Positions 15,833-28,529 of a stretch of DNA of 33,220 nucleotides are shown here, in pieces. The notes below the pieces were generated by a model that did no database searches, was not told the DNA's origin, and was given only the letters and a program-made list of their open reading frames with translations. Source of the DNA: Acidobacteriota bacterium. Its GTDB lineage: Bacteria; Acidobacteriota; Terriglobia; Terriglobales; Acidobacteriaceae. The translations under genes were made by a program, and so were the position numbers. The stretch spans positions 1-33,220 of the forward strand of contig JAKBHH010000034.1 in the NCBI GenBank assembly GCA_021836865.1, read 5' to 3'. Each line of letters opens with the position of its first letter. The stretch's first letter is position 1.

Positions 15833-16743
15833 TCAGCCGCGGTCCAACTGCGCGTTGCGCAGGGTGCGTATCACTTTGATATTTCTTGCCAGTCCGAGCA
15901 GCCCCAGCAGCCGAATGAGCCAGTAGTTGAAATCCAGCTCCCACCACCTCATGCCATGGGTTGCAGAGACGGGATGTGCATGGTGATTGTTGTGCCAACC
16001 CTCGCCGCCGGTCAGCAGCGCAACCCACCAGTTATTGGTTGAATCGTCGTGGGTATTGAAGCGGCGCACTCCCCATAAATGGGTTGCGGAGTTGACGAGC
16101 CAGGTCACATGGAAGCCGATGGTAGTCCGCAGCAGTACGCCCCAGAGCAGCCATGACAGGCCCAGCCTCCATCCCCCAGTGCAGTACCGCAAGCCAGGAG
16201 CGCAATGCCGCTAAAGGTGATGGGAATCCAATGCCAGACGGCGAGCCACCGGTAGAAGCGATTTCGCTGCAGGTCAGGCGCGTAGTGAGAGAGCATGGTG
16301 GTTTCATTGTGCAGTGCGCCGTGCAATATCCATCCCATGTGCGACCACCATTTGCCATCGCGAGGCGAATGCGGATCGCCTGACCGATCCGTGTATTGGT
16401 GGTGCATGCGATGCACAGCGACCCAATAGATGGGACTGCCCTGCAGGGTCAAGGTGCCGCAGACCACCATCAGATACTCCAGCCATTTGGGAGTGGTGAA
16501 GCCGCGATGCGTGAGTTGGCGGTGATAGCAGACGGCAATGCCGACATTCTGACCCACGATCCACATCGCGAGAAACACGACCAGCGAAGACCAACGGAAG
16601 CAGAACAGAGCCGCGACAGCGCCGAGGTGAAACGCCGCAATTACGACGAAGAATACCCAGTTGAATTCATCTGATTTACCTTGCACCAGATGAACTGCTT
16701 CTGGCCCGCTTGTTCTCTGCGGCTCTGCAAGAAGTGTCGCCAT
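15833..16743 (-). pseudogene. Acyl-CoA/fatty-acid desaturase interrupted by a one-base frameshift
   Basis: Two adjacent frames give one desaturase. The first, from ATG 16743, holds two hydrophobic helices, His box 1 HRQLTHRGF (His74-His79) and box 2 HRMHHQYTD (111-119). It stays in family sequence to [14 protein letters not shown], then goes astray. The second frame picks up at about 16192 with [14 protein letters not shown] and carries [15 protein letters not shown] and box 3 [12 protein letters not shown]. Adding one base between 16192 and 16193 joins them into a full-length protein of about 300 residues. All three di-iron His clusters are intact, so the break is recent, programmed, or a sequencing error. 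The intact enzyme would introduce a double bond (delta-9 type) into membrane acyl chains. The next 270 bp towards the response regulator hold its leader. Confidence 0.85.
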
Positions 16744-16925
16744 AGAATCTCTGCCTTGGTTGTAAGGTAATCGGTCGCAACGCCGCACAGCATCTGCGCT
16801 GCCTGCTCAGGCACGCAGTATCCAGCTTAAGCAGCTTGTCTGCCGGATCTCTGAGCAAAACGGCTCACATTGCCTGCGCCGGCTGCAGGGAGCCAGGCTT
16901 CCGCTCCGCGCGATTGTCAGATGCA

Positions 16926-16943: not shown

Positions 16944-17015
16944 GCGGGGGTCCTCAGTGGATGGCATTCTATGCGGTAGGTTCAGTCCCCTGCATCCCCA
17001 ACGGAGGTCATGGCG

Positions 17016-17663
17016 ATGAGCGACACGTTCAGAAAAAGGGTCCTCCTGGTAGACGACGATCCTGGCATTTGCGATGCCATGGGAATGCTTCTCGCTGAAG
17101 AAGGCTACGATATTGCCACTGCATCCGACGGCTTAGATGCGTTGATGCAGATCAAACTCGCTACTCCGGATATCATCGTCTCCGATCTCAACATGCCGCG
17201 CATGTCGGGCCACGAGTTTCTCTCCGTCGTACGCCTGCGCTTTTGCTCGATTCCGGTGATCGCGATGAGTGGCGACTACGATTCCGACCTACGCTTTCCC
17301 GGCGGAGTGTTCGCCGATGCCTTCTTTGCTAAGGGACGAAGCCATCCCCAAGACCTTGTGCGCACAATCGCAGATCTGATTCGAACGACGGTGACGCGGC
17401 CGATGGGCCATCAGCACCGGGATGACCTATTGCAGACGCCACGGTACGGGAAGGATTCCAACGGAACCACATTCATAATGCTGACCTGCACGGAATGCCT
17501 GCGGTCCTTTGCATCAAACGTCATGCAGACGGTCTTGCAGGAGAGCCAGCAGGCTTCGTGTCCATACTGCAGCGCCCGGGTCCGATACGTCTGCGACGAT
17601 TCGCTGTTCGGTGCTACGCCGCCTGCGGTCTCGCCGGGGCAGGCTGGCAGGGTGGCGGCCTGA
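17016..17663 (+). CDS. Response regulator receiver protein with a C-terminal CxxC/CxxC zinc-ribbon-like tail
   Basis: ATG 17016 is chosen over 17010 because GGAGG (17003-17007) is eight bases from it but only two from 17010. Residues 7-125 form a receiver domain: acidic pocket Asp13-Asp14-Asp15, phospho-acceptor Asp57 in IIVSDLNMPRMSG, Ser/Thr switch in VIAMSGD and Lys106 in FFAKGRS. Residues 150-195 hold two cysteine pairs, CTEC (158-161) and CPYC (182-185), with a spacing suited to one zinc ion. No DNA-binding or enzymatic output domain is visible, so it may act through protein contacts or redox-sensitive zinc binding. No kinase gene is adjacent; the nearest is the PAS kinase at 19446-20765. 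Confidence 0.82.
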   Translation: MSDTFRKRVLLVDDDPGICDAMGMLLAEEGYDIATASDGLDALMQIKLATPDIIVSDLNMPRMSGHEFLSVVRLRFCSIPVIAMSGDYDSDLRFPGGVFADAFFAKGRSHPQDLVRTIADLIRTTVTRPMGHQHRDDLLQTPRYGKDSNGTTFIMLTCTECLRSFASNVMQTVLQESQQASCPYCSARVRYVCDDSLFGATPPAVSPGQAGRVAA

Positions 17664-17696: not shown

Positions 17697-18401
17697 TTAC
17701 GAAACTCGTTCGATTGGCGGTGTCTCAGCATTGTGCTCCGGTAGCTGGTCGAGCAGGACCACATTCAGCAGGGACTTGTGCACCTGGATGCGCCCGTTGT
17801 AATCGATGAATCCCAGCGCGCGAAAGCGATTCATAAAGAAGCTGACGCGAGATCTAGTGGTGCCAATCATCTCGGCTAGAGTTTCCTGGGTAATGGGCGG
17901 AATGAAGGTATTGGGTTCGCCGGGCTGTCCAAACTCTGCCATCAAAAGCAGTATGCGCGCCAGACGCTTTTCACTCGAGTTGAAGAGCTGATCGACAAGA
18001 TCGGCTTGTATGCGCATGCTGCGGGCCAGAAGGAACCTCAGGAAGAGGTCAGAGAATTCATGCTCCTCGTGCATCACGCGGATCATCTCTGTTCGTCTGA
18101 TCTCCAGCGCGGTGCAGGCCGTGATGGATACAGCAGTGGATATGCGCAGGCCGGGCACTGTTGCGAGGCACTCTTCTCCGACAAAGTCGCCGGGGTAAAG
18201 AAGCGCGAGAGTGGCCTCTTTGCCGGCCTTTGACACGACGGTGAGCTTTGCCCTTCCCTTTTGGAGGTAAAACACAGAGCTTGCCGGATCACCTTGAGAA
18301 TAGAAAGGCTGCTTCTGCTTCACCGTGGTGATTCTTCGGCCAAGGCCCGCGTTCGCAAGAAAGACAGTAGGGTCAAATTTGGAATGGCCTGGATCACTCA
18401 T
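17697..18401 (-). CDS. Crp/Fnr-family transcriptional regulator
   Basis: A 234-residue protein with an N-terminal cyclic-nucleotide-binding beta-roll (about 20-140; the stretch YPGDFVGEECLA is the phosphate-cassette region). A long dimer helix follows, then a C-terminal winged helix (about 165-215) with recognition-helix pattern QETLAEMIGTTRSRVSFFMNRF. No N-terminal cysteine cluster is present, so it is not an oxygen-sensing Fnr. The cassette lacks the R-S/T pair of cAMP-binding Crp, so the ligand is unclear. It is convergent with the REC-zinc gene, with only 33 bp between the stops. Target genes cannot be deduced. Confidence 0.87.
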   Translation of the reverse strand: MSDPGHSKFDPTVFLANAGLGRRITTVKQKQPFYSQGDPASSVFYLQKGRAKLTVVSKAGKEATLALLYPGDFVGEECLATVPGLRISTAVSITACTALEIRRTEMIRVMHEEHEFSDLFLRFLLARSMRIQADLVDQLFNSSEKRLARILLLMAEFGQPGEPNTFIPPITQETLAEMIGTTRSRVSFFMNRFRALGFIDYNGRIQVHKSLLNVVLLDQLPEHNAETPPIERVS

Positions 18402-18739: not shown

Positions 18740-19444
18740 CTAATGCGCCGTGTCGCCGGGCTCATTTTCCAGCGCCTCTGGCGTGAGGAGTCCCATCTGC
18801 ACGGCAAAGCGAATCACATCGCTGCGCGTTCGCAGGCCGAGCTTCTGAGTAAAACGCGATCGATAGGTCTCGATTGTCTTCACGCCCACATAAATCTGCG
18901 TGGCAATTTCTGCGCTGGTGTAGCCGCGCGCCACGAGGCCAAGTACCTGCAATTCACGGCGGCTAAGGATATTGGCGGGGCGGGCGGAGCGAGTATTTGA
19001 ACCTGTCTTCGCGAGCACATTCTGGACCAGGGTGCCCGCCAGTCTGGGATCGATGAAGACTCCGCCGCGATGGACCGCACGGATGGCGGCAATCAGCTCC
19101 GCGTCCACCGCCCGCTTCAAAAGGTAGCCGGAGGCTCCGGCAGCCAATGCCGATCGTAAGTACGCGGAGTCGTCATGCATTGTGAGGATGAGCACCCGGA
19201 CTTCAGGGCAGTCTCGCATGATTGCATGCAGTGCCTTTATCCCTCCAACCCTGGGCATGGTCAGATCCAGCAACACTACGTCCGGTTTCGACTCGCGTGC
19301 GGTTTGAATCGCCGTCTCTCCATCGGAAGCTTCCGAGATCACCTCCATATCGGGCTGAGCACTGACCAGCATCCTGAGACCTGCGCGAAGAATCGCATGA
19401 TCATCCGCGATCATGACCCTGATCCTCTGTTTGCGCATTGCCAT
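18740..19444 (-). CDS. NarL/FixJ-family response regulator
   Basis: A 234-residue regulator. The receiver domain (about 7-125) has Asp14-Asp15, phospho-acceptor Asp60 in VVLLDLTMP, Thr in VLILTMHDD and Lys in GYLLKRA. The C-terminal LuxR-type helix-turn-helix (about 168-225) has SRRELQVLGLVARGYTSAEI and VKTIETYRSR. The start lies one base after the histidine kinase stop, so kinase and regulator are certainly co-transcribed and are almost surely a cognate pair. A second in-frame ATG two codons on (MRKQ) is possible. It is the last gene of the minus-strand run beginning with the radical SAM gene, and is likely the transcriptional output of the KaiBC module. Confidence 0.9.
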   Translation of the reverse strand: MAMRKQRIRVMIADDHAILRAGLRMLVSAQPDMEVISEASDGETAIQTARESKPDVVLLDLTMPRVGGIKALHAIMRDCPEVRVLILTMHDDSAYLRSALAAGASGYLLKRAVDAELIAAIRAVHRGGVFIDPRLAGTLVQNVLAKTGSNTRSARPANILSRRELQVLGLVARGYTSAEIATQIYVGVKTIETYRSRFTQKLGLRTRSDVIRFAVQMGLLTPEALENEPGDTAH

Positions 19445-19445
19445 G

Positions 19446-20765
19446 TCACGTGCTCCTTTGCTGCGCGAGGGGATTGAGCACCGAGTGAACGAGAGGTACT
19501 TGCACCAGCATCCTCGTTCCCTTGCGCTGAGCCGTGAATGTCATCGTTCCGCCCAGCAGAGCTGCCCTCTCCCGCATACTCTGAATCCCAAGCCGATGCG
19601 TGGAGACAGCCACAGCCTTTGCGTCAAAGCCACACCCGTCATCGATGACCTCTACCTCCAGGGCCGTCTCGGAACGAGTGAATTGAATTCTGACCTTCCT
19701 GGCTCCGGAATGCCTGGCAACGTTGGTCAGAGCTTCCTGGAGAATGCGATACAAGGCGATCTGGACCGCAGGCGGAAGGTTGCTGGAATCAAGATCATGG
19801 AGAACGAGATCCACCGCTATCTTGTGTGTGGTTTGGTATTCAGTAATGTATCTGCGCAACGCAACCCCCAGGCCATGGTCGTCGAGTACCGACGGATGAA
19901 GCCCGCGGGCGAGTCGGCCGACCTCGTCGATGGCCTGGGCGGCGATCTCTCTCAGCTGACGGCCGTGCGCTTTAACATCCGATAGCTTCCGGGTGTCCTC
20001 CAACGATCGCAGGCCGACGAGAAGGGCCGTCAGTAACTGCCCCGCTTCGTCGTGCAATTCGCGCGCAATCCTTCGCCGTTCCTCCTCCTGCGCTGCAAGT
20101 GTACGTTCCAGAAGGAGCCGATGTGTTGCTTCGGTTTGGGTGATCTCCTCAGCCTGCCTGCGTTTTTGCTCACTCAGGTCCGTGATCACCATGCCCAGGA
20201 CCTGCCCTTTGTATCCTTGAAGGCGGTTGAGCGACAAATAGACCGGAGTCAGAATTCCATCTGCGGGGCGCAGGTTGAATTCGCCCTTCGCGACCGTCCT
20301 TTGTGCTTTGTCCAGCAGAGCTTCAAATCTCTCGCGCTCTGCTTCGGCAACCAGGGACTGCACAACAGTTCCAGCGATCTTCCCTGGCGTCCTGCCCAGC
20401 AGTTCAGCAAACCTGCGATTGCAGTAAAGCACGGCGCCCGTGCGTGACAAAGTCGCTGCGCCCTCGCTCATCGCCTCCACCAACATTCGATAGTTGGGCT
20501 CGCCGCCCTTTAGAGCCACCAGCCGCACTCCCTGACGACCGGAAACCATCAAGGCATCCACTTCGCCCGACTGGATTGCGCGAAGCGTCTCTTCCGCACT
20601 CTTCAATCGCGCGTGGAGTTTTGCTTGCGAGTCCGGTGATGTGGAAGGCGACCGCTTGCTGGGAGAAGAGCTGTTGCCTTGCGGAGATTTTTCAGGCGCG
20701 ACAAATTTGCCGGGCAGAGCCTTTGGGAGGATTCGGCCATTGGAGTGTGCGCGCCTGTTGGCCAT
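19446..20765 (-). CDS. PAS-domain sensor histidine kinase, HisKA_3/NarX type
   Basis: A 439-residue soluble kinase without membrane segments. A basic, Ser-rich leader (1-47) is followed by the module SAEETLRAIQSGEVDALMV, which I associate with kinases encoded next to kaiBC. A PAS domain (about 93-200), a coiled coil (about 203-232), the HisKA_3 dimerisation domain with phospho-acceptor His238 in RRIARELHDEAGQ, and an HATPase domain follow. The ATPase has the N-box EALTNVARHS (344-353), the G1 box DDGCGF (375-380) and the G2 box GIQSMRERA. It starts 20 bp after kaiB and ends one base before the NarL-type regulator. Unlike cyanobacterial SasA it has no KaiB-like thioredoxin domain, so any Kai input would come by another contact, perhaps through the N-terminal module or PAS. 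Confidence 0.9.
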   Translation of the reverse strand: MANRRAHSNGRILPKALPGKFVAPEKSPQGNSSSPSKRSPSTSPDSQAKLHARLKSAEETLRAIQSGEVDALMVSGRQGVRLVALKGGEPNYRMLVEAMSEGAATLSRTGAVLYCNRRFAELLGRTPGKIAGTVVQSLVAEAERERFEALLDKAQRTVAKGEFNLRPADGILTPVYLSLNRLQGYKGQVLGMVITDLSEQKRRQAEEITQTEATHRLLLERTLAAQEEERRRIARELHDEAGQLLTALLVGLRSLEDTRKLSDVKAHGRQLREIAAQAIDEVGRLARGLHPSVLDDHGLGVALRRYITEYQTTHKIAVDLVLHDLDSSNLPPAVQIALYRILQEALTNVARHSGARKVRIQFTRSETALEVEVIDDGCGFDAKAVAVSTHRLGIQSMRERAALLGGTMTFTAQRKGTRMLVQVPLVHSVLNPLAQQRST

Positions 20766-20785
20766 ACGGGGTTTTCGCTTTCACG

Positions 20786-21160
20786 TCAGAGTACGGGTTG
20801 AAGATCCAACCCCACAATGACGCTCTCGGTCTTTGACAGGTTGCCAATGATCTTCTTGACGGGGGGCGGGAGCCTTCGCACCAGAGTTGGAATGGCGATG
20901 ATCTGATCGCCCTTGGCCAGTTGCGGCTTCTCGAGCAAGTCAACCACCTCGATGCGGTACTTGCCCTTCAGCTTATCCTCACACAGCTTTTTAAGGTTGG
21001 CGACTGCGGTGATCGAATTCGGTGTTTGGCCCGCGATGTAAAGCCGCAAGATGAAAAAGTCGCTCCGGCTGGTCCTGTCTGGGCGCTTCTTTGCTGGACG
21101 CTTCTTGGCTGCGCTCTTCTTCATGCCGGAGGACTTCTTCGTCTCTGTGTTTGCCTTCAT
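20786..21160 (-). CDS. kaiB: KaiB-family protein with a lysine-rich N-terminal extension
   Basis: The thioredoxin-like KaiB core spans about residues 35-122: [20 protein letters not shown], then [15 protein letters not shown], then [20 protein letters not shown]. All are hallmark segments, including the cis-Pro region (PTL) and the PPP turn. I take the start at 21160 (MKANTETKK); a GTG at 21196 would add 12 residues. The first ~34 residues are a Lys/Arg-rich, disordered tail absent from the ~100-aa cyanobacterial KaiB; it may bind nucleic acid or an acidic partner. The gene follows kaiC by 57 bp and precedes the kinase by 20 bp. By family knowledge KaiB binds the CI ring of KaiC in its fold-switched state. 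Confidence 0.9.
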
Positions 21161-21217
21161 GTCGTTGTACCAACTCCTGCTCAAGCGGAAAATCACGCGA
21201 CTTGGCCGCGCGAAATG

Positions 21218-22690
21218 TTATTGACCGGCAACGTGTGTGGCTACCGTATGATCTTTCAGGACGATGCCCAATTCGAGGCCGCTCTTACTCACAATCAGCT
21301 CACGAACCTCGCGGGAATGCTCCATGCCGCGAGATTTCAGGATGTAAAGCTCCCGCCGTGGCCGCCCATTGGGCTTGCTGTCCCGCAATACCACCCAGGT
21401 GTCCATCAGCGAAGAAACGGCCGCCGCAGTTTTCTCCTGGGGATCTCCGGCAAAGGTCAAATTTGTGAATATGGATGTGACCTGTTCCACCTTCAAAAAA
21501 TCGACCAGGCGGACGAGCATCGATTTAACGTCATAACTGCCCGTTGCCGAAACCAGGTTTGTAATCGGGTCGATGACCACGACGCTCGGGCGAAGCCGAG
21601 AGATTAATTTATGAATGACAGCCAGGTGCCCTTCAAGGCCGGTACTGGTTGGGCGCATCGCGTTGAAGTGCAATAGCCTCTTTTTGACCCACCGCTCCAA
21701 ATCAAGACCCACGGAGCGCATGTTGCGGAGAATCTGGCTGGGAGACTCTTCAAAAGTAAAATACAGGCAAAGTTCGCCGCGCGCGCAGGCGGCGCTGGCG
21801 AAATTTGCCGCCAGGCTGGATTTTCCGGTTCCCGCCGTGCCGGTTACCAGCACACTGCTGCCGCGGAAAAATCCCTTGCCTTCCATCATCTGATCCATTG
21901 CGGGAATCCCGGTTGAAACGCGATCCGTGCGAGCTTCATGAGTGAGTGCGAGAGAGGTAATGGGCACAACCGAGATGCCGTCCTCATCAATGAGGAAAGG
22001 ATATTCATCGGTACCGTGCGAAGTGCCCCGGTACTTAACGACGCGCAGCCGCCGGGTGGAAATCTGTTCCGTTACCCGGTGATCCAGTGCAATGACGCAG
22101 TCGGCGATGTATTCCTCGAGCCCGTGGCGGGTCAATGTGTTGATTCCAGCTTCCGCGGTCACAATCGCGGTTAGATGGTGGTCTTCCAGCCAACGGAACA
22201 GCCGCTGCAGCTCTGAACGCAGGATTGCTGTATCCGCGACGCCCGCAAAAAGCGCCTGAACGCTATCCAGAACAACGCGCTTTGCCTTGATCGTTTTTAC
22301 CGCATGGCCCAAACGGATAAAGAGGCCATCGAGGTTGTACTCTCCAGACTCGGTAATCTGGCTCCGCTCAATGAAAACGTAATCGATCAGCAGCTTCTTG
22401 CGCTTGGTAAGGTCATGCAGATCAAAACCCAGGGATGTGACGTTTGCGGCCAGCTTTTCCTCAGTTTCCTCGAAATTCATGCATACGCCGGGCTCGTTAT
22501 ATTGAACTGCACCGTTCACGAGAAATTGCATCGCGAGTAAACTCTTGCCGCAGCCCGCTTTGCCGCACACCAGCGACACCCGACCTTTGGGCAGGCCACC
22601 ATCTGTGACTTCATCCAGTCCCTGGATTCCTGTCGGGGCCTTGGCGAGTTGGTGGCGAGCAACTTTTTGAACTGACTTGGCGCGGGGCAT
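21218..22690 (-). CDS. kaiC: KaiC, double-domain RecA-like ATPase/autokinase
   Basis: The start at 22690 (MPRAKSVQ) is set by CAGGAG eight bases upstream; the frame is open to 22786 without such a site. The 490-aa protein has both KaiC domains. CI has Walker A GKAGCGKS (43-50), catalytic Glu pair 74-75 and Walker B VVLDS (139-143). CII has Walker A GTAGTGKS (284-291), Glu pair 314-315 and Walker B VVVID (370-374). In CII the stretch T421-AAAV-S426-S427-LMDT aligns with Synechococcus T426, S431 and T432, so both phosphosites are kept, with Ser in place of Thr432. No kaiA is present, as usual outside cyanobacteria. The C-terminal tail is short and lacks the cyanobacterial KaiA-binding segment, as far as I can judge. 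It is the first Kai gene of an apparent operon. Confidence 0.93.
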   Translation of the reverse strand: MPRAKSVQKVARHQLAKAPTGIQGLDEVTDGGLPKGRVSLVCGKAGCGKSLLAMQFLVNGAVQYNEPGVCMNFEETEEKLAANVTSLGFDLHDLTKRKKLLIDYVFIERSQITESGEYNLDGLFIRLGHAVKTIKAKRVVLDSVQALFAGVADTAILRSELQRLFRWLEDHHLTAIVTAEAGINTLTRHGLEEYIADCVIALDHRVTEQISTRRLRVVKYRGTSHGTDEYPFLIDEDGISVVPITSLALTHEARTDRVSTGIPAMDQMMEGKGFFRGSSVLVTGTAGTGKSSLAANFASAACARGELCLYFTFEESPSQILRNMRSVGLDLERWVKKRLLHFNAMRPTSTGLEGHLAVIHKLISRLRPSVVVIDPITNLVSATGSYDVKSMLVRLVDFLKVEQVTSIFTNLTFAGDPQEKTAAAVSSLMDTWVVLRDSKPNGRPRRELYILKSRGMEHSREVRELIVSKSGLELGIVLKDHTVATHVAGQ

Positions 22691-22746
22691 AGTGAGACTC
22701 CTGAGGTTCAGGCGGGCGGGTTCGGACGTGAGACTGTCAATGTGAC

Positions 22747-23097
22747 CTAGGACCTGTTCACAGTGCCAGGGCGGATAGCGTTGCAAGCGAACATGGGGTC
22801 AGACGAAGCCGAGCCCGAAGGCTGTGGCAGGTCCACCGTCAAGGGCGAGAATGAAGGATGTCCCCATGCTCGCTTCCAACCCGAAGGGCCGGGAACAATT
22901 TTCCCGATTTCTGCGTCGATCGTCGCCAGCAGACAACCGGTATGCGTCACTCCTCGCTCCTTGAACTCGAAAAACTTGGCTCCTGGCGCCACCGCCCTGA
23001 TGGTGTGAACTGGCCCTAGTATGAGGGCTCGCTCTTCCCCACTGCAAATGCGGCATTTGCCCACTGCCAGGCGAAGAATCTCTCCTTGCTCTGACAT
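22747..23097 (-). CDS. Small protein with a CxxC pair, function unknown
   Basis: A 116-residue frame between the radical SAM gene (48 bp away) and kaiC (56 bp away), on the same strand. Its first part reads as a plausible folded protein: KCRICSGEE (a CxxC pair), ILGPVHTIR, AKFFEFKERGVTHTGCLLAT and EIGKIVPGPSG. The C-terminal third is Pro/Ser-rich. No good ribosome site precedes the ATG at 23097; AAGGAG occurs just inside the frame, so a GTG some 11 codons on could be the real start. I do not recognise a family. A single cysteine pair and a third Cys could bind metal or be redox-active. Confidence 0.45.
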   Translation of the reverse strand: MSEQGEILRLAVGKCRICSGEERALILGPVHTIRAVAPGAKFFEFKERGVTHTGCLLATIDAEIGKIVPGPSGWKRAWGHPSFSPLTVDLPQPSGSASSDPMFACNAIRPGTVNRS

Positions 23098-23145
23098 GAA
23101 AAATATCGCTCACCCCGGCGGCTATCCGATTCGTTCAGTTTCGCT

Positions 23146-24687
23146 CTATGAATTTGTTGATAACTCGCCGCCATGGAGCGAATACTCGCAATGTTCCTTA
23201 GGCAGCTTCTGCGTCATTACCTGAAAGTGATAACCCATTACCGCCAGGGTCATGGCAGAACCGAAGCAACGGTGATAGCGGGTGACCGCGGCCAGCAGGA
23301 ATTTCCAATAACTCCAGCGCTGCGGGCCAAAGAGCCCCTGGCGAATGATGGAGGTGACAAATGCGCGCACGTTGGCGCGGGTCATCCATCGCTGCCTGGA
23401 CACGCGCTCGCCGGGTCGCGGCTGCGTGCGGCTCAGGTAAAGTTTGACGCGGTCATAATAGGCCTCGCACGAATAGATTCGCCTGAGCACCGAGCGATAG
23501 CCTTCCACCAGTCGCGTCGCGTCCATGCGGGGAAGAAAATTGAGCCTGTCACTCGTGTTGTCACCGTGGCCCGCATCCAGAATTCTGCCTTCTCGCCACA
23601 AGCGCCGAAAAAGTTGCGTTCCGGGCATGGCCTGAAGAAGCCCTACCATGGCAATGGGGATCCCGCTGTCCTGAATGAAATCGACCATGCGGTCGAAGAT
23701 ATCCTCGCGGTCTGTGTCGAAACCCAGAATGAAGCCGCCCATGACCTGCATGCCATATCGTTGGATGATGGCTACACTTTCGAGCAGGCTGCGGCGCGTG
23801 TTCTGGAGTTTGTTGCTGGCGACCAGGCCCGACTCGTCGGGAGTCTCGATGCCCAGAAAGACCGAGACGAAACCGGCGTCTTTCATCAGTTGCATCAACT
23901 CCGGATCGTCGGCCAGGTTCAGGGAAGCCTCTGTATTGAAGTCGAAGCTGGTTTTGTATTGGCTTCGCCATTGGGCCAACGCGGTGCATAGCTCCTTGGC
24001 GCGCGCTTTGTTGCCGATGAAGTTGTCATCGACGATAAACACGGCTTCGCGCCAGCCGGCGGCTCGCAACTGGTCTAGTTCAGCCAGCACCTGCGCCACG
24101 GCCTTGGTGCGCGGGCGCCGGCCGTAGATCTCGATGATGTCGCAGAATTCGCAGTTGAAGGGACATCCGCGCGAGTATTGCACGGCCATGGTCGAGTAGC
24201 GGCGCATTTTAATCAGGCTCAAGTCGGGCAACGGGCTGGTTTCCATCGCGGGCCGCTCGGACGCCTGATAGATTGGCTCGGCCACGCCCTGCTCCAGATC
24301 CCGCGCCAGGTCGGCAATCAGGCTTTCAGCCTCGCCAATCACGACGTGGTCCGCCCTCAGTTGCTCCGCCGGAATGCTGCTGGCAATAGGCCCGCCCACA
24401 ACGGTGCGCAGGCCGCGCGCCCGGCAACGGTCCACAAGGGCCACCAGGGACTCGCGCTGGATGTGCATGCCGCTCAGGAGTACCACGTCGGCCCAGTCCA
24501 GGTCACGGTCGCGCAGCCGCTCCACGTTGGTGTCCACCAGGCGCTTGCTCCACGACTTCGGCAACAATGCCGCTACCGTCATCAGCCCGAGCGGAGGCTG
24601 CGCAGCTCGCTTGCCCAGAAACTTGAGCGCATGCTTGAAGCTCCAGTAGGTCTCGGAAAACTCCGGATAGATCAACAGGGCATTCAT
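23146..24687 (-). CDS. B12-binding radical SAM protein with DUF4070 (HpnP-like family)
   Basis: A 513-residue enzyme with GGAGAGG before its ATG. Residues 1-140 resemble the cobalamin-binding Rossmann domain: YPEFSETYWSFKHALKF, PPLGLMTVAALLP, then SGM and VVGGPIASS. The radical SAM domain starts at about 165 with YSRGCPFNCEFCDIIEIYGR, giving the CxxxCxxC 4Fe-4S cluster. It continues with FIVDDNFIGNK, FNTEASLNLADDPELM, FLGIETPDE and GGFILGFDTD. The C-terminal part (about 365-500) matches the DUF4070 layout. The family includes the hopanoid C-2 methylase HpnP, but also many uncharacterised members, and this N-terminus looks closer to the latter. It probably methylates or otherwise modifies a lipid or similar substrate. 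It begins the minus-strand run that leads into the Kai genes. Confidence 0.85.
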   Translation of the reverse strand: MNALLIYPEFSETYWSFKHALKFLGKRAAQPPLGLMTVAALLPKSWSKRLVDTNVERLRDRDLDWADVVLLSGMHIQRESLVALVDRCRARGLRTVVGGPIASSIPAEQLRADHVVIGEAESLIADLARDLEQGVAEPIYQASERPAMETSPLPDLSLIKMRRYSTMAVQYSRGCPFNCEFCDIIEIYGRRPRTKAVAQVLAELDQLRAAGWREAVFIVDDNFIGNKARAKELCTALAQWRSQYKTSFDFNTEASLNLADDPELMQLMKDAGFVSVFLGIETPDESGLVASNKLQNTRRSLLESVAIIQRYGMQVMGGFILGFDTDREDIFDRMVDFIQDSGIPIAMVGLLQAMPGTQLFRRLWREGRILDAGHGDNTSDRLNFLPRMDATRLVEGYRSVLRRIYSCEAYYDRVKLYLSRTQPRPGERVSRQRWMTRANVRAFVTSIIRQGLFGPQRWSYWKFLLAAVTRYHRCFGSAMTLAVMGYHFQVMTQKLPKEHCEYSLHGGELSTNS

Positions 24688-26399: not shown

Positions 26400-27389
26400 A
26401 TGCGATTACGTTCCAGCTTGACCCCTGCGACCGTCGTCACAGGCATGGTCCTGCTGCTGCAGTGCCCTGGACTCACGGCGCAAGCGCCTCCCACTACGAT
26501 CGCGACGGCGCTCCCTGAAAATCTTCCGGAAGCTCCGCAGGCGCCTTTTGCGCAAGCGATGGATGCGATCAGCTTCTTCGAAGCGGTAAATTCTGGCTCG
26601 GGTCAGAGCCAGGACGCACCACCCCCTGAGCCTGCCCCCACTCGCGCCCCGGCGAGTTCAAATTCCGCAGCGCAGACCAGCCCGGTCGACGCAGACAAGG
26701 CCAGGCAACAAAAGGCTGAAGAACAACTTAAGGAGGAAGAGAAGCAGCGCGTTCTGGGCATCGTCCCAATGTTCAATACCACCTACCGCAGCGACGCCGT
26801 CTCGCTGACCGCGCGGCAGAAGATAAGCCTCGCCTTTCGCTCTTCGGTTGACCCCGCCACCTTTGCTGCTGCTGTCCTTGTGGCCGGTTATGGCGAGGCA
26901 TTGGACTCCGACAGCGGATTCCCCTGGGGTGCGAAGGGCTTTGGCGAGCGCGCCGGCGCCAAATATCTGGACGCCTTTGACGGCACCATGATTGGCAACG
27001 GCATTCTGCCATCTCTTCTGCATCAGGATCCCCGTTATTTCCGGCTCGGCCATGGGTCCGTGCAGCACCGACTGTTCTACGCCGTGGCCACCAGCGTCAT
27101 CTGCAAACACGACAACACCGGCAAATGGGAGCCCAACTACTCCAATGTGCTGGGCAACATTGCTTCGGGCGCACTCTCTAACCTCTACTACCCCGCGAAC
27201 GACTCCGGAATCGGCCTGACGATCGGCAATGGTTTCGTTGTGACGGCGGAAGGCGCGATCGGCTCCGTCTTTCAGGAGTTCTGGCCGGATCTGTCGCGCA
27301 TGCTCTTCCACAAGGATCCGACACGCGGACTGGACACTCAGGCTCAGACTGCCGGGGCTTCAGGACAATCGCAGCCCACGCACCAATAG
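26400..27389 (+). CDS. Exported protein of unnamed acidobacterial-type family (paralogue A)
   Basis: A 329-residue protein with AGAAAGGTGA before the ATG, and a signal peptide (about 1-28, ending in LTAQA). A Pro/Ala-rich stretch follows, then a Lys/Glu coiled coil (about 100-118) before the folded region. The folded region starts with RVLGIVPMFN and contains LPSLLHQDPRYFRLGHGS, RLFYAVATSVI, SNVLGNIASGALSNLYYP and FQEFWPDLSRMLFHKDP. The same signposts recur in the next gene, so these two are homologous. Small-residue-rich helices and the export signal suggest an envelope location. I do not know a function and found no catalytic motif. Confidence 0.8.
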   Translation: MRLRSSLTPATVVTGMVLLLQCPGLTAQAPPTTIATALPENLPEAPQAPFAQAMDAISFFEAVNSGSGQSQDAPPPEPAPTRAPASSNSAAQTSPVDADKARQQKAEEQLKEEEKQRVLGIVPMFNTTYRSDAVSLTARQKISLAFRSSVDPATFAAAVLVAGYGEALDSDSGFPWGAKGFGERAGAKYLDAFDGTMIGNGILPSLLHQDPRYFRLGHGSVQHRLFYAVATSVICKHDNTGKWEPNYSNVLGNIASGALSNLYYPANDSGIGLTIGNGFVVTAEGAIGSVFQEFWPDLSRMLFHKDPTRGLDTQAQTAGASGQSQPTHQ

Positions 27390-27698
27390 AACCTGCATGG
27401 CTGGAGTCTTTCTGGATGGGATCTGAGCGTTGCAAATCACCTGTCCGAGCGAGTTTCGGGGCAGGATTCGCTTTTTCATTGCCTTTTCGGGATGATCGCT
27501 GCATCCGGCAACTGAACTTTACGTCTAAAGAGTGAGCTACGCAGTTTTAGGTTTGCCCCGCGGCCGCAAACTGGGGTCCGCCTGCACAAGTTGCCCGGAG
27601 ACAGGGTCTCTGCGAAATCCGGTATTCTGAGAGTTATGCCTCTGCTCGCTGCGGCTGTGCCTTTTGGGCCGCTGGGCAGAAAGTGTGGAGGATCGTTT
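27390..27698. other. Gap between the two paralogues
   Basis: About 300 bp with no gene. Nothing recognisable apart from the ribosome site of the next gene (GGAGG, 27687-27691). If the next gene starts at 27636, the gap shortens by 63 bp. Confidence 0.4.
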
Positions 27699-28529
27699 TT
27701 GCGCCTTTTTGCCTTCTTATTCTGGACTCTCGCAGTGACTGCGACCTATGCGCAACAGGACGCCCCGCGCGCGGCGCAGCCTGCCGCGCCCAGTGCGCAG
27801 GCGCCTCTTGCGCAGGCACCCAACACCGGAGCAGCGCAGCAGCCAGATCCCGCGTCCTCCGCAAAGGGCGCGCAACCGGCCAACCTGCCGGAGACTCCCG
27901 GAGAGCCCGCGTCGAAGCCCTCAGGGGCGCTCCCTGGGCAGGAACAGCCCAAGCGGATTCTTGGTTTCATGCCCAACTATCGCGCCGTGAGCGCAGGCGC
28001 GATTCCGCCGCCACCCACTTCGCGCGAGGCATTCGGGATCGCGACAGAGAACAGCTTCGACTACTCGTCCTATGCCTTCGTTGGCATTACCTCGTTGCTG
28101 GCCGAGGGGTCAAATACGCATCCGCAACTGGGCAAAGGTCCGGCGGGTTTCTGGGGATACACGTGGCGCGGGTTTGTTGATAAGACCGATGGCAACTACC
28201 TTGTAATCTGGGCGCTGCCCAGCGTCCTGCACGAGGACGAGCGCTACTTTGCCAAAGGGCAAGGGGGCGTCTGGAAGCGCGCCGTCTACGCCGGCTCGCG
28301 CGTACTGATTACGCCGAACTACCAGGGTCACAATACCTTTAATGCCGCCGAGATTGTTGGCCGCGGGATGGCTCAGGGCATCTCCCTGGCGTACTATCCA
28401 TCCGCGGACCAGAACCTCGGCGATCTTTCAGAAAAATTCGGATATGCCATCGGGCGCGATGCCCTCACCAATGCCTTTCGCGAGTTCTGGCCCGACATCG
28501 CAAAGCACGTGCTCCACCGGCATCCCTGA
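27699..28529 (+). CDS. Exported protein of unnamed acidobacterial-type family (paralogue B)
   Basis: I prefer the TTG start at 27699: GGAGG (27687-27691) is seven bases upstream and the product opens with a compact signal peptide, RLFAFLFWTLAVTATYA. The alternative ATG at 27636 has no clear ribosome site and would put a polar stretch before the signal. A low-complexity Ala/Pro/Gln segment leads to RILGFMPNYRAVSAG, then LPSVLHEDERYFAKGQGGVW, KRAVYAGSRVLITPN, NAAEIVGRGMAQGISLAYYP and FREFWPDIAKHVLHRHP. These match paralogue A in order and spacing, though identity is modest, so the duplication is old. Function unknown; presumably envelope-associated. Confidence 0.8.
   Translation: MRLFAFLFWTLAVTATYAQQDAPRAAQPAAPSAQAPLAQAPNTGAAQQPDPASSAKGAQPANLPETPGEPASKPSGALPGQEQPKRILGFMPNYRAVSAGAIPPPPTSREAFGIATENSFDYSSYAFVGITSLLAEGSNTHPQLGKGPAGFWGYTWRGFVDKTDGNYLVIWALPSVLHEDERYFAKGQGGVWKRAVYAGSRVLITPNYQGHNTFNAAEIVGRGMAQGISLAYYPSADQNLGDLSEKFGYAIGRDALTNAFREFWPDIAKHVLHRHP

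What the first reader, a model, noticed from the sequence alone, without database searches (positions are those of the whole stretch)
18740..24687. KaiA-less kaiC-kaiB operon wired to a PAS/HisKA_3 kinase and NarL regulator, headed by a B12 radical SAM gene
Six minus-strand genes follow each other with gaps of 48, 56, 57, 20 and 1 bp: radical SAM/B12, small CxxC protein, kaiC, kaiB, histidine kinase, NarL-type regulator. In cyanobacteria the output pair is SasA (KaiB-like sensor, HisKA) and RpaA (OmpR type). Here both output parts belong to different families, and no KaiB-like sensor domain is visible in the kinase. That implies a different way of passing KaiC state to transcription, and possibly a link to membrane lipid methylation through the first gene. 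KaiBC with PAS kinases occurs in other bacteria, so the pieces are known; the full six-gene unit and its output are what look new.
Basis: partly seen in the sequence, partly recalled or inferred. Interest (0 to 1): 0.8.

Follow-up and report, generated by a model that had tools for sequence, protein, structure and literature searches.

The report
KaiBC timer operon with output module
This bacterium carries a stripped-down relative of the cyanobacterial clock, whose signalling kinase has a short conserved piece that, in the searches made here, turned up almost only beside such clock genes in bacteria and archaea, and may be how these clocks pass on their signal.

Summary
Partly confirmed. kaiC, kaiB, a PAS/HisKA_3 kinase and a NarL-type regulator are real and tightly spaced (57, 20, 1 bp). 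The six-gene operon is not: the "small CxxC protein" is an ORF read through a dispersed MITE-like repeat (22747-23019) in a 455-bp gap, and the radical SAM gene beyond it was beside kaiC in none of 39 kaiC loci from 36 other genomes. The four-gene core is a known kind, the KaiA-less kaiC-kaiB-PAS/kinase operon of Rhodobacter sphaeroides. Two points stand out. (1) KaiC has that kind's Ser-Ser site but lacks the coiled-coil tail that joins R. sphaeroides hexamers; 13 of 92 KaiCs are short like this. (2) Before its PAS domain the kinase has a ~45-residue helix-hairpin module. Of 79 loci found by this module, 76 have kaiC/kaiB alongside (12 phyla, archaea included; the other 3 lie at contig ends), as do 12 of 12 plasmid hits; a minority of matches in the window's own class (6 of 32 genomes) are unlinked. 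It is fused to several kinase classes, c-di-GMP enzymes and sigma-54 activators. I read it as the KaiBC-to-output coupling module; binding is untested.

The parts
21218..22690 (-). kaiC, 490 aa, two ATPase domains, Ser-Ser site, tail-less
   Evidence: best solved relatives 8db3/8dba/8fwi, named as R. sphaeroides KaiC in PMC10076222; length and tail
21410..21415 (-). codons of KaiC Ser426-Ser427, aligned with R. sphaeroides Ser413/Ser414
   Evidence: alignments; RS sites from passages of PMC10076222
20786..21160 (-). kaiB, 124 aa, with a Lys-rich N-terminal extension of about 35 aa; an in-frame GTG start at 21196 is also possible
   Evidence: Pfam KaiB; PDB KaiB matches at about aa 35-120
19446..20765 (-). 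sensor kinase, 439 aa: linker - module - PAS - HisKA_3 - HATPase_c
   Evidence: module
20490..20627 (-). KaiBC-linked module (HK aa 47-92): predicted helix + beta hairpin
   Evidence: alignments; linkage; model
18740..19444 (-). NarL-type response regulator (REC + LuxR/GerE HTH)
17697..18401 (-). Crp/Fnr-type regulator 338 bp downstream, same strand; a 62% identical one also follows the RR in L038
   Evidence: membership in the unit is inference
22747..23019 (.). dispersed MITE-like repeat with 28-bp terminal inverted repeats, in the gap before kaiC; source of the false CxxC ORF 22747-23097
23146..24687 (-). B12/radical SAM/DUF4070 gene; upstream neighbour, not part of the conserved unit

Best explanation
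A KaiA-independent KaiBC timer with a two-component output. Shown: gene content and order, KaiC type, no KaiA and no KaiB-like sensor kinase found in the genome, no KaiC tail, conserved kinase module. Inferred: KaiC autophosphorylates on Ser426/Ser427 by itself as R. sphaeroides KaiC does, as a single hexamer because the coiled-coil tail is missing, and KaiB resets it when ATP/ADP falls; the kinase senses the KaiC/KaiB state through the helix-hairpin module that sits directly before the PAS domain; the PAS domain passes this to HisKA_3 autophosphorylation; phosphate goes to the adjacent NarL-type regulator, which sets transcription. The same module-PAS unit drives other effectors in other organisms. 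The radical SAM gene and the repeat are bystanders.
For: KaiC is closest to R. sphaeroides KaiC among solved structures (562-567 bits against 345 for the next group), with Ser-Ser at the phosphosite. Module linkage: genome-contig scan with the module, 79 loci, kaiC and/or kaiB in 76; in the 3 others the module starts 44, 445 and 250 bp from the contig end on the upstream side, so their neighbours cannot be judged. Plasmids: the window's own module alone (69 aa) against 72,556 records hits 12, and all 12 have kaiC 0.6-1.0 kb upstream on the same strand (9 of 12 are C. sphaeroides, 4 genera in all). Class of G299: 229 genomes, 5 hits besides the centre G299 itself, kaiC and kaiB sequence upstream in all 5. 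Output direction: of 70 module proteins scanned (the window's and those of 69 of the 79 loci) HATPase_c 53, HisKA 36, HisKA_3 14, REC 17, GGDEF 4, EAL 4, sigma-54 activator 4; an HD domain in L170; HWE kinase in R. sphaeroides by annotation. Sigma-54 activators and c-di-GMP enzymes act downstream of their sensors (family knowledge).
Against: No binding or phosphotransfer data. In the window's class 6 of 32 module genomes have no kaiC at 1e-60, and no KaiB/KaiC was found in the stretches fetched around those modules (G205 has only about 0.6 kb upstream before the contig end); five of the six are weak matches (1.2e-18 to 1.9e-7), one is strong (G267, 5e-26), so linkage is not absolute. 11 of 37 kaiC genomes lack a module match: 6 of these have only a ~35% KaiC, 2 have Crp in the kinase's place, G278 has neither, 2 end at a contig end. 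The model of the module is of low to middling confidence (blocks of 10 residues 51-82, and under 50 at HK 87-95). Papers propose the kinase as redox INPUT to KaiBC (PMC5520375; PMC10931921).
Confidence: 0.58

Rival explanations
1. The kinase is the input, not the output: its PAS domain senses redox or oxygen and resets KaiBC.
For: Proposed for R. sphaeroides and R. rubrum (passages of PMC5520375, and PMC10931921). PAS domains are typical sensors (family knowledge).
Against: The same module-PAS unit is fused to sigma-54 activators and GGDEF/EAL proteins beside kaiBC, and here and in several other loci the kinase has a DNA-binding regulator adjacent.
Confidence: 0.2
2. The module is only a dimerising or signalling helix of one protein lineage that travels with kaiBC by descent; no physical coupling.
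For: A helix plus hairpin before PAS could be a generic linker. Six genomes of the class hold module matches without kaiC.
Against: The module stays while the C-terminal effector changes class (HisKA, HisKA_3, HWE, GGDEF/EAL, HD, sigma-54) and the neighbour stays kaiBC in 12 named phyla.
Confidence: 0.17
3. The first reader's six-gene operon headed by a radical SAM enzyme that links the timer to membrane lipids.
For: Same strand and adjacent in this one genome. In one named kaiBC locus, L156, a partial rSAM homologue (52%) lies 5.8 kb downstream of the module protein.
Against: 455-bp gap holding a dispersed repeat; 0 of 39 other kaiC loci of the class; 29 of 29 other rSAM loci examined without KaiB/KaiC in up to 1.5 kb either side; G147, with the 81% identical KaiC, has no rSAM match at 1e-60.
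Confidence: 0.03

Closest known systems
Rhodobacter (Cereibacter) sphaeroides KaiBC hourglass, PDB 8DBA/8DB3/8FWI (PMC10076222, passages read)
   Same: KaiA-less kaiC-kaiB-PAS kinase order; Ser-Ser KaiC (55% identical); a recognisable copy of the same kinase module
   Different: R. sphaeroides KaiC has a tail of about 105 aa (dodecamer) and its kinase is annotated HWE with no response regulator gene beside it; here tail-less, HisKA_3 + NarL
Rhodopseudomonas palustris kaiC-kaiB-PAS/HK operon (PMC4794148, passages read)
   Same: gene order
   Different: its kinase sequence was not compared; module not checked
Cyanobacterial KaiABC-SasA-RpaA
   Same: KaiC and KaiB
   Different: no KaiA, no KaiB-like sensor kinase, regulator is NarL not OmpR type (RpaA type recalled)
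Ramlibacter kaiC-Nt_HK (RtaNt module; PMC3164672, section 17 read)
   Same: idea of a conserved N-terminal KaiC-partner module in the adjacent kinase
   Different: that group has no kaiB; RtaNt is described there as similar to KaiB, SasA and a receiver domain; its sequence was not compared here
NarX/DesK-type HisKA_3 kinase + NarL regulator pairs
   Same: transmitter and regulator families
   Different: input part is the KaiBC-linked module + PAS; membrane segments were not tested for

Membership tests
KaiC2 / R. sphaeroides-type KaiC | two KaiC ATPase domains, best match to the R. sphaeroides group | tested here: met
KaiC2 / R. sphaeroides-type KaiC | Ser-Ser phosphosite pair | tested here: met
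   aligned
KaiC2 / R. sphaeroides-type KaiC | extended coiled-coil C-terminal tail | tested here: not met
   16 aa beyond residue 474 against 105 in R. sphaeroides
KaiC2 / R. sphaeroides-type KaiC | autokinase and KaiB-dependent dephosphorylation | not testable with these tools
   needs purified protein
SasA | KaiB-like N-terminal sensor domain | tested here: not met
   only one KaiB-domain place in the genome, kaiB itself; no KaiB hit in the HK
SasA | HisKA dimerisation domain | tested here: not met
   HisKA_3
RpaA | OmpR-type winged-helix output | tested here: not met
   GerE/LuxR HTH
HisKA_3-NarL two-component pair | HisKA_3 + HATPase_c kinase next to a REC-GerE regulator | tested here: met
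   (1-bp gap)
kaiC-kaiB-PAS/HK operon | gene order with a PAS kinase directly downstream of kaiB | tested here: met
   same order in relatives
kaiC-kaiB-PAS/HK operon | one transcript | not testable with these tools
   needs RNA
KaiBC-linked module proteins (defined here) | A1 profile match before a PAS domain, beside kaiBC | tested here: met
   1.8e-28, the only match at E<=1e-6 in its genome; the window row is itself part of A1
MITE | short, terminal inverted repeats, multiple copies, too short for a transposase | tested here: met
   273 bp, 28-bp TIRs 79% complementary, two near-full and several partial copies
MITE | target-site duplication | tested here: inconclusive
   no clear duplication beside the copies printed
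lipid/hopanoid B12 radical SAM (HpnR, HpnJ, TIGR04072) | score above the curated cut-off | tested here: not met
   61-74 bits against cut-offs 360-650

The most novel reading that the evidence does not exclude
The helix-hairpin module before the PAS domain of this kinase is a general KaiBC-reading adaptor, a so far undescribed counterpart of SasA's KaiB-like domain, that plugs KaiA-less KaiBC timers in bacteria and archaea into interchangeable outputs (HisKA, HisKA_3 and HWE kinases, hybrid kinases, c-di-GMP enzymes, sigma-54 activators).
Probability: 0.5. Interest if true: 0.78.

Novelty: new variant of a known kind. Interest (0 to 1): 0.56.

Why it matters
How KaiBC systems without KaiA and SasA signal is an open question; even the direction (input or output kinase) is unsettled. 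A short, sequence-defined module that predicts kaiBC next door in bacteria and archaea, and is present in the R. sphaeroides kinase where KaiBC biochemistry already exists, makes the question directly testable. The tail-less KaiC is a natural counterpart of the engineered delta-coil KaiC and tests what the coiled coil is for.

Tried and rejected
Rejected: the six-gene unit and CxxC gene. Rejected: a KaiB-like sensor in the kinase. Considered: tail loss coupled to having one kaiB; the counts do not show it (96 loci with a determined tail and at least 1.5 kb downstream, of 108: short tails, 6 loci with two kaiB, 5 with one, 2 with none; middle, 2 with two; long, 60 with two, 18 with one, 3 with three). 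Considered: the second KaiB as a locked SasA-like partner; the Gly and Asp positions that I recall as governing fold switching are mostly kept in both copies (KaiB1 96 and 84 of 105; KaiB2 75 and 60 of 80). Rfam: 0 matches in the window at gathering thresholds. Promoter and terminator scans: 1 promoter-like site against 3.0 expected, 9 terminator-like against 7.1, so uninformative. A first KaiC tree (37 rows with distant ones) put window + L038 + L044 together at 98 (97, 29 rows); in the 92-row tree only window + L038 is starred, so I do not claim L044 as sister. Rows left out of that tree before the count: matches under 480 bits or spanning under 430 residues, with stops, or without a determined tail, and 5 taken as the same contigs as others. 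In one search a frame slip in my script left the named loci out; one search replaces it. Foldseek of the module-PAS model: 1248 matches, the 50 listed are PAS-containing proteins by their descriptions, so nothing on the module. The PDB search with the radical SAM protein gave two distant enzymes.

Literature on the module: the 8 searches made (0 papers) and the passages seen in 8 papers (PMC5520375, PMC4794148, PMC10076222, PMC11372060, PMC11832031, PMC10931921, PMC6627678, and PMC3164672 with its section 17) did not mention it. Subscription papers are mostly not held, and supplements were not read, so 'undescribed' is limited to this.
Full report
WHAT IS THERE. The window is one whole contig (G000:C2, 33,220 bases) of a 3.98-Mb assembly, 96% complete (for none; contig length). 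No KaiA match was found in the genome; among 14 control genomes the search rings only in Synechococcus elongatus. The only KaiB-domain place is kaiB itself, so no SasA-like kinase was found. A Crp/Fnr-type gene follows 338 bp downstream (17697-18401), as one does in the closest relative locus, L038.

WHAT IS NOT THERE. The 'small CxxC protein' (22747-23097) is not a gene. Its translation gives 8 matches in this genome, itself included, and 10, 14 and 11 in three genomes of the same family, in pieces and often across stops. At DNA level it is a 273-bp element, 22747-23019, with 28-bp terminal inverted repeats 79% complementary, folding better than all 200 shuffles as DNA (z -4.6), with two further copies at 89-90% over 266-280 bp and shorter pieces in the genome. 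That is a MITE-like repeat; a target-site duplication was not evident. The radical SAM gene therefore ends 455 bp before kaiC. It was beside kaiC in 0 of 39 kaiC loci from 36 other genomes of the class (3 of the 39 hold under 0.5 kb upstream of kaiC). 83 of 299 genomes, own included, have a homologue, but the 29 other rSAM loci examined (up to 1.5 kb either side) hold no KaiB or KaiC. Against this, one named kaiBC locus (L156) has a partial rSAM homologue 5.8 kb downstream of its module protein. In the closest relative, G147 (KaiC 81%), DNA similarity stops 14 bp upstream of the kaiC start.

THE CORE UNIT. KaiC-like genes (E<=1e-60) occur in 37 of 299 genomes of the class, own included. Of the 32 loci with 51-82% identical KaiC (L038-L069), 24 have a kinase with matches to the window HK downstream; of the 8 without, 3 stop at a contig end (L048, L066, L068), 2 have Crp after kaiB (L055, L059), 2 have no kaiB (L063, L064) and L044 has kaiC-kaiB only. 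A second kaiB often stands between kaiB and kinase: 70 of 75 named loci with kaiB from the later scan have two copies; this window has one. The kaiC-kaiB-PAS/HK layout is known from R. palustris and R. sphaeroides (PMC4794148, passages), and PMC3164672 (section 17 read) noted that kaiC-kaiB clusters outside cyanobacteria almost all have a histidine kinase or GGDEF/EAL gene immediately downstream.

KAIC. The best solved relatives are 8db3, 8dba and 8fwi (562-567 bits; next group 345), named as R. sphaeroides KaiC in PMC10076222 (passages). The Glu pairs after each Walker A motif (catalytic by recall) and the Ser-Ser pair (426/427 = RS 413/414) are kept. That paper's passages say that the C-terminal tail forms a coiled coil joining two hexamers, and that cutting it gives a hexamer with a similar phosphorylation rate. 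The window KaiC ends 16 residues after position 474, against 105 in R. sphaeroides. On 92 KaiCs, 13 are short (45 residues or fewer) and the trait changes at least 7 times (quick tree, direction not inferred). So this looks like a natural delta-coil KaiC, a minority state seen in several phyla.

THE KINASE MODULE. Aligning kinases beside kaiBC showed that the transmitter varies but HK residues ~47-92 plus the PAS domain are kept. No Pfam family matched this stretch at E<=0.001. Tests: (a) class survey: module (E<=1e-6) in 32 of 299 genomes, 26 of them among the 37 kaiC genomes; 6 without kaiC, 11 kaiC without module (Fisher p 3e-23, but the profile was built from 21 of these loci, so this is not independent). 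The 6 module-only places were fetched and show no KaiB/KaiC; G205 has only about 0.6 kb upstream, the others 4.7 kb or more. (b) genome-contig scan with module alignment A2 (8 rows, pattern AIRxGEVDA): 595 stretches (limit reached), 414 confirmed, 79 loci kept; KaiC in 73, KaiB in 76, either in 76. In the three others (L146, L162, L175) the module starts 44, 445 and 250 bp from a contig end. Named phyla of linked loci: Acidobacteriota, Thermodesulfobacteriota, Myxococcota, Methanobacteriota, Nitrospirota, Planctomycetota, Pseudomonadota, Verrucomicrobiota, Chloroflexota, Cyanobacteriota, Lentisphaerota, Bacillota. (c) 72,556 plasmid records searched with the window's own 69 residues: 12 hits, all in kaiC records, 0.6-1.0 kb downstream of kaiC on the same strand. 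Nine are C. sphaeroides, including strain 2.4.1 (kaiC-kaiB-HWE kinase). Of 16 kaiC records, 13 are over 50% identical; the 13th, Falsirhodobacter, matches the module profile; the three ~35% ones gave no module hit. (d) 229 genomes of the class of G299 (the genome of L188): 6 hits, one of them G299 itself; kaiC and kaiB sequence lies upstream in all 5 others, though in L238 kaiC looks internally deleted and in L240 it is in several frames.

WHAT IT IS FUSED TO. Of 70 module proteins scanned (the window's and those of 69 of the 79 loci; 10 loci left out, mostly cut short; two of the 69, L162 and L175, have no seen kai neighbour), 53 have HATPase_c, 36 HisKA, 14 HisKA_3, 17 REC, 4 GGDEF, 4 EAL, 4 sigma-54 activator domains; L170 has an HD domain. 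In A4 (77 rows) the mean majority frequency is 0.74 over 34 module columns outside the search pattern and 0.52 over 108 PAS columns (biased upward for the module because loci were ranked by module similarity). AlphaFold2 gives a helix (HK 44-66) and a beta hairpin (71-76, 79-84) before the PAS fold; mean pLDDT 80.6, pTM 0.61, but the module blocks are 51-82.

MECHANISM. I infer that KaiC phosphorylates itself without KaiA, KaiB promotes the return, and the module-PAS unit reads the KaiC/KaiB state and drives the kinase and the adjacent NarL regulator. Output rather than input is favoured because the same unit is fused to sigma-54 activators and GGDEF/EAL proteins; published proposals for R. 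sphaeroides and R. rubrum favour a redox input role for the kinase (PMC5520375, PMC10931921). Physical contact is not shown. A NarL-type regulator beside the kinase recurs in other kaiBC loci, so this output is one variant among several.

VERDICT. The finding as written is overstated; the core is a known kind with a variant KaiC. The module is the part worth following.

Noticed in passing
window 22747-23019; G087, G135, G155, G203 and others: A MITE-like 273-bp repeat with CTAGG...CCTAG ends is dispersed in this genome, and its translation matches many places in genomes of the same family; it creates spurious ORFs.
   Followed up: partly
L063:7060-8286, L064:11181-12407: kaiC without a kaiB match in the locus, followed by a CheB-methylesterase/Crp fusion protein (408 aa): a different KaiC partner.
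   Followed up: partly
L055, L059: kaiC-kaiB followed directly by a Crp/Fnr gene instead of a kinase (Pfam for L055).
   Followed up: no
L151, L193; L158, L180, L188, L212; L170: KaiBC-linked module-PAS fused to sigma-54 activators, to GGDEF proteins (EAL confirmed one by one in L158), and to an HD domain.
   Followed up: partly
L137 (G267), L138 (G241): Module-bearing kinases without kaiBC in the fetched flanks: former Kai partners or the exception to the rule.
   Followed up: no
L238: kaiC looks internally deleted (matches to residues 15-115 and 424-474 abut) with kaiB and the module intact.
   Followed up: no
L070: A ~37% KaiC with kaiB followed by a PAS-GGDEF-EAL protein without a module match.
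   Followed up: no
window 15833-16788, minus strand: A desaturase-like reading frame looks split over two frames around 16105-16192, a frameshift or an assembly error; label by eye, no Pfam hit for the first part.
   Followed up: no
window 17010-17663 and 17697-18401: A receiver-domain gene lies tail to tail with the Crp gene; a Crp gene with a similar receiver gene nearby also occurs in L058.
   Followed up: no
window 26400-27389 and 27591-28529: Two neighbouring ORFs look like paralogues by eye.
   Followed up: no
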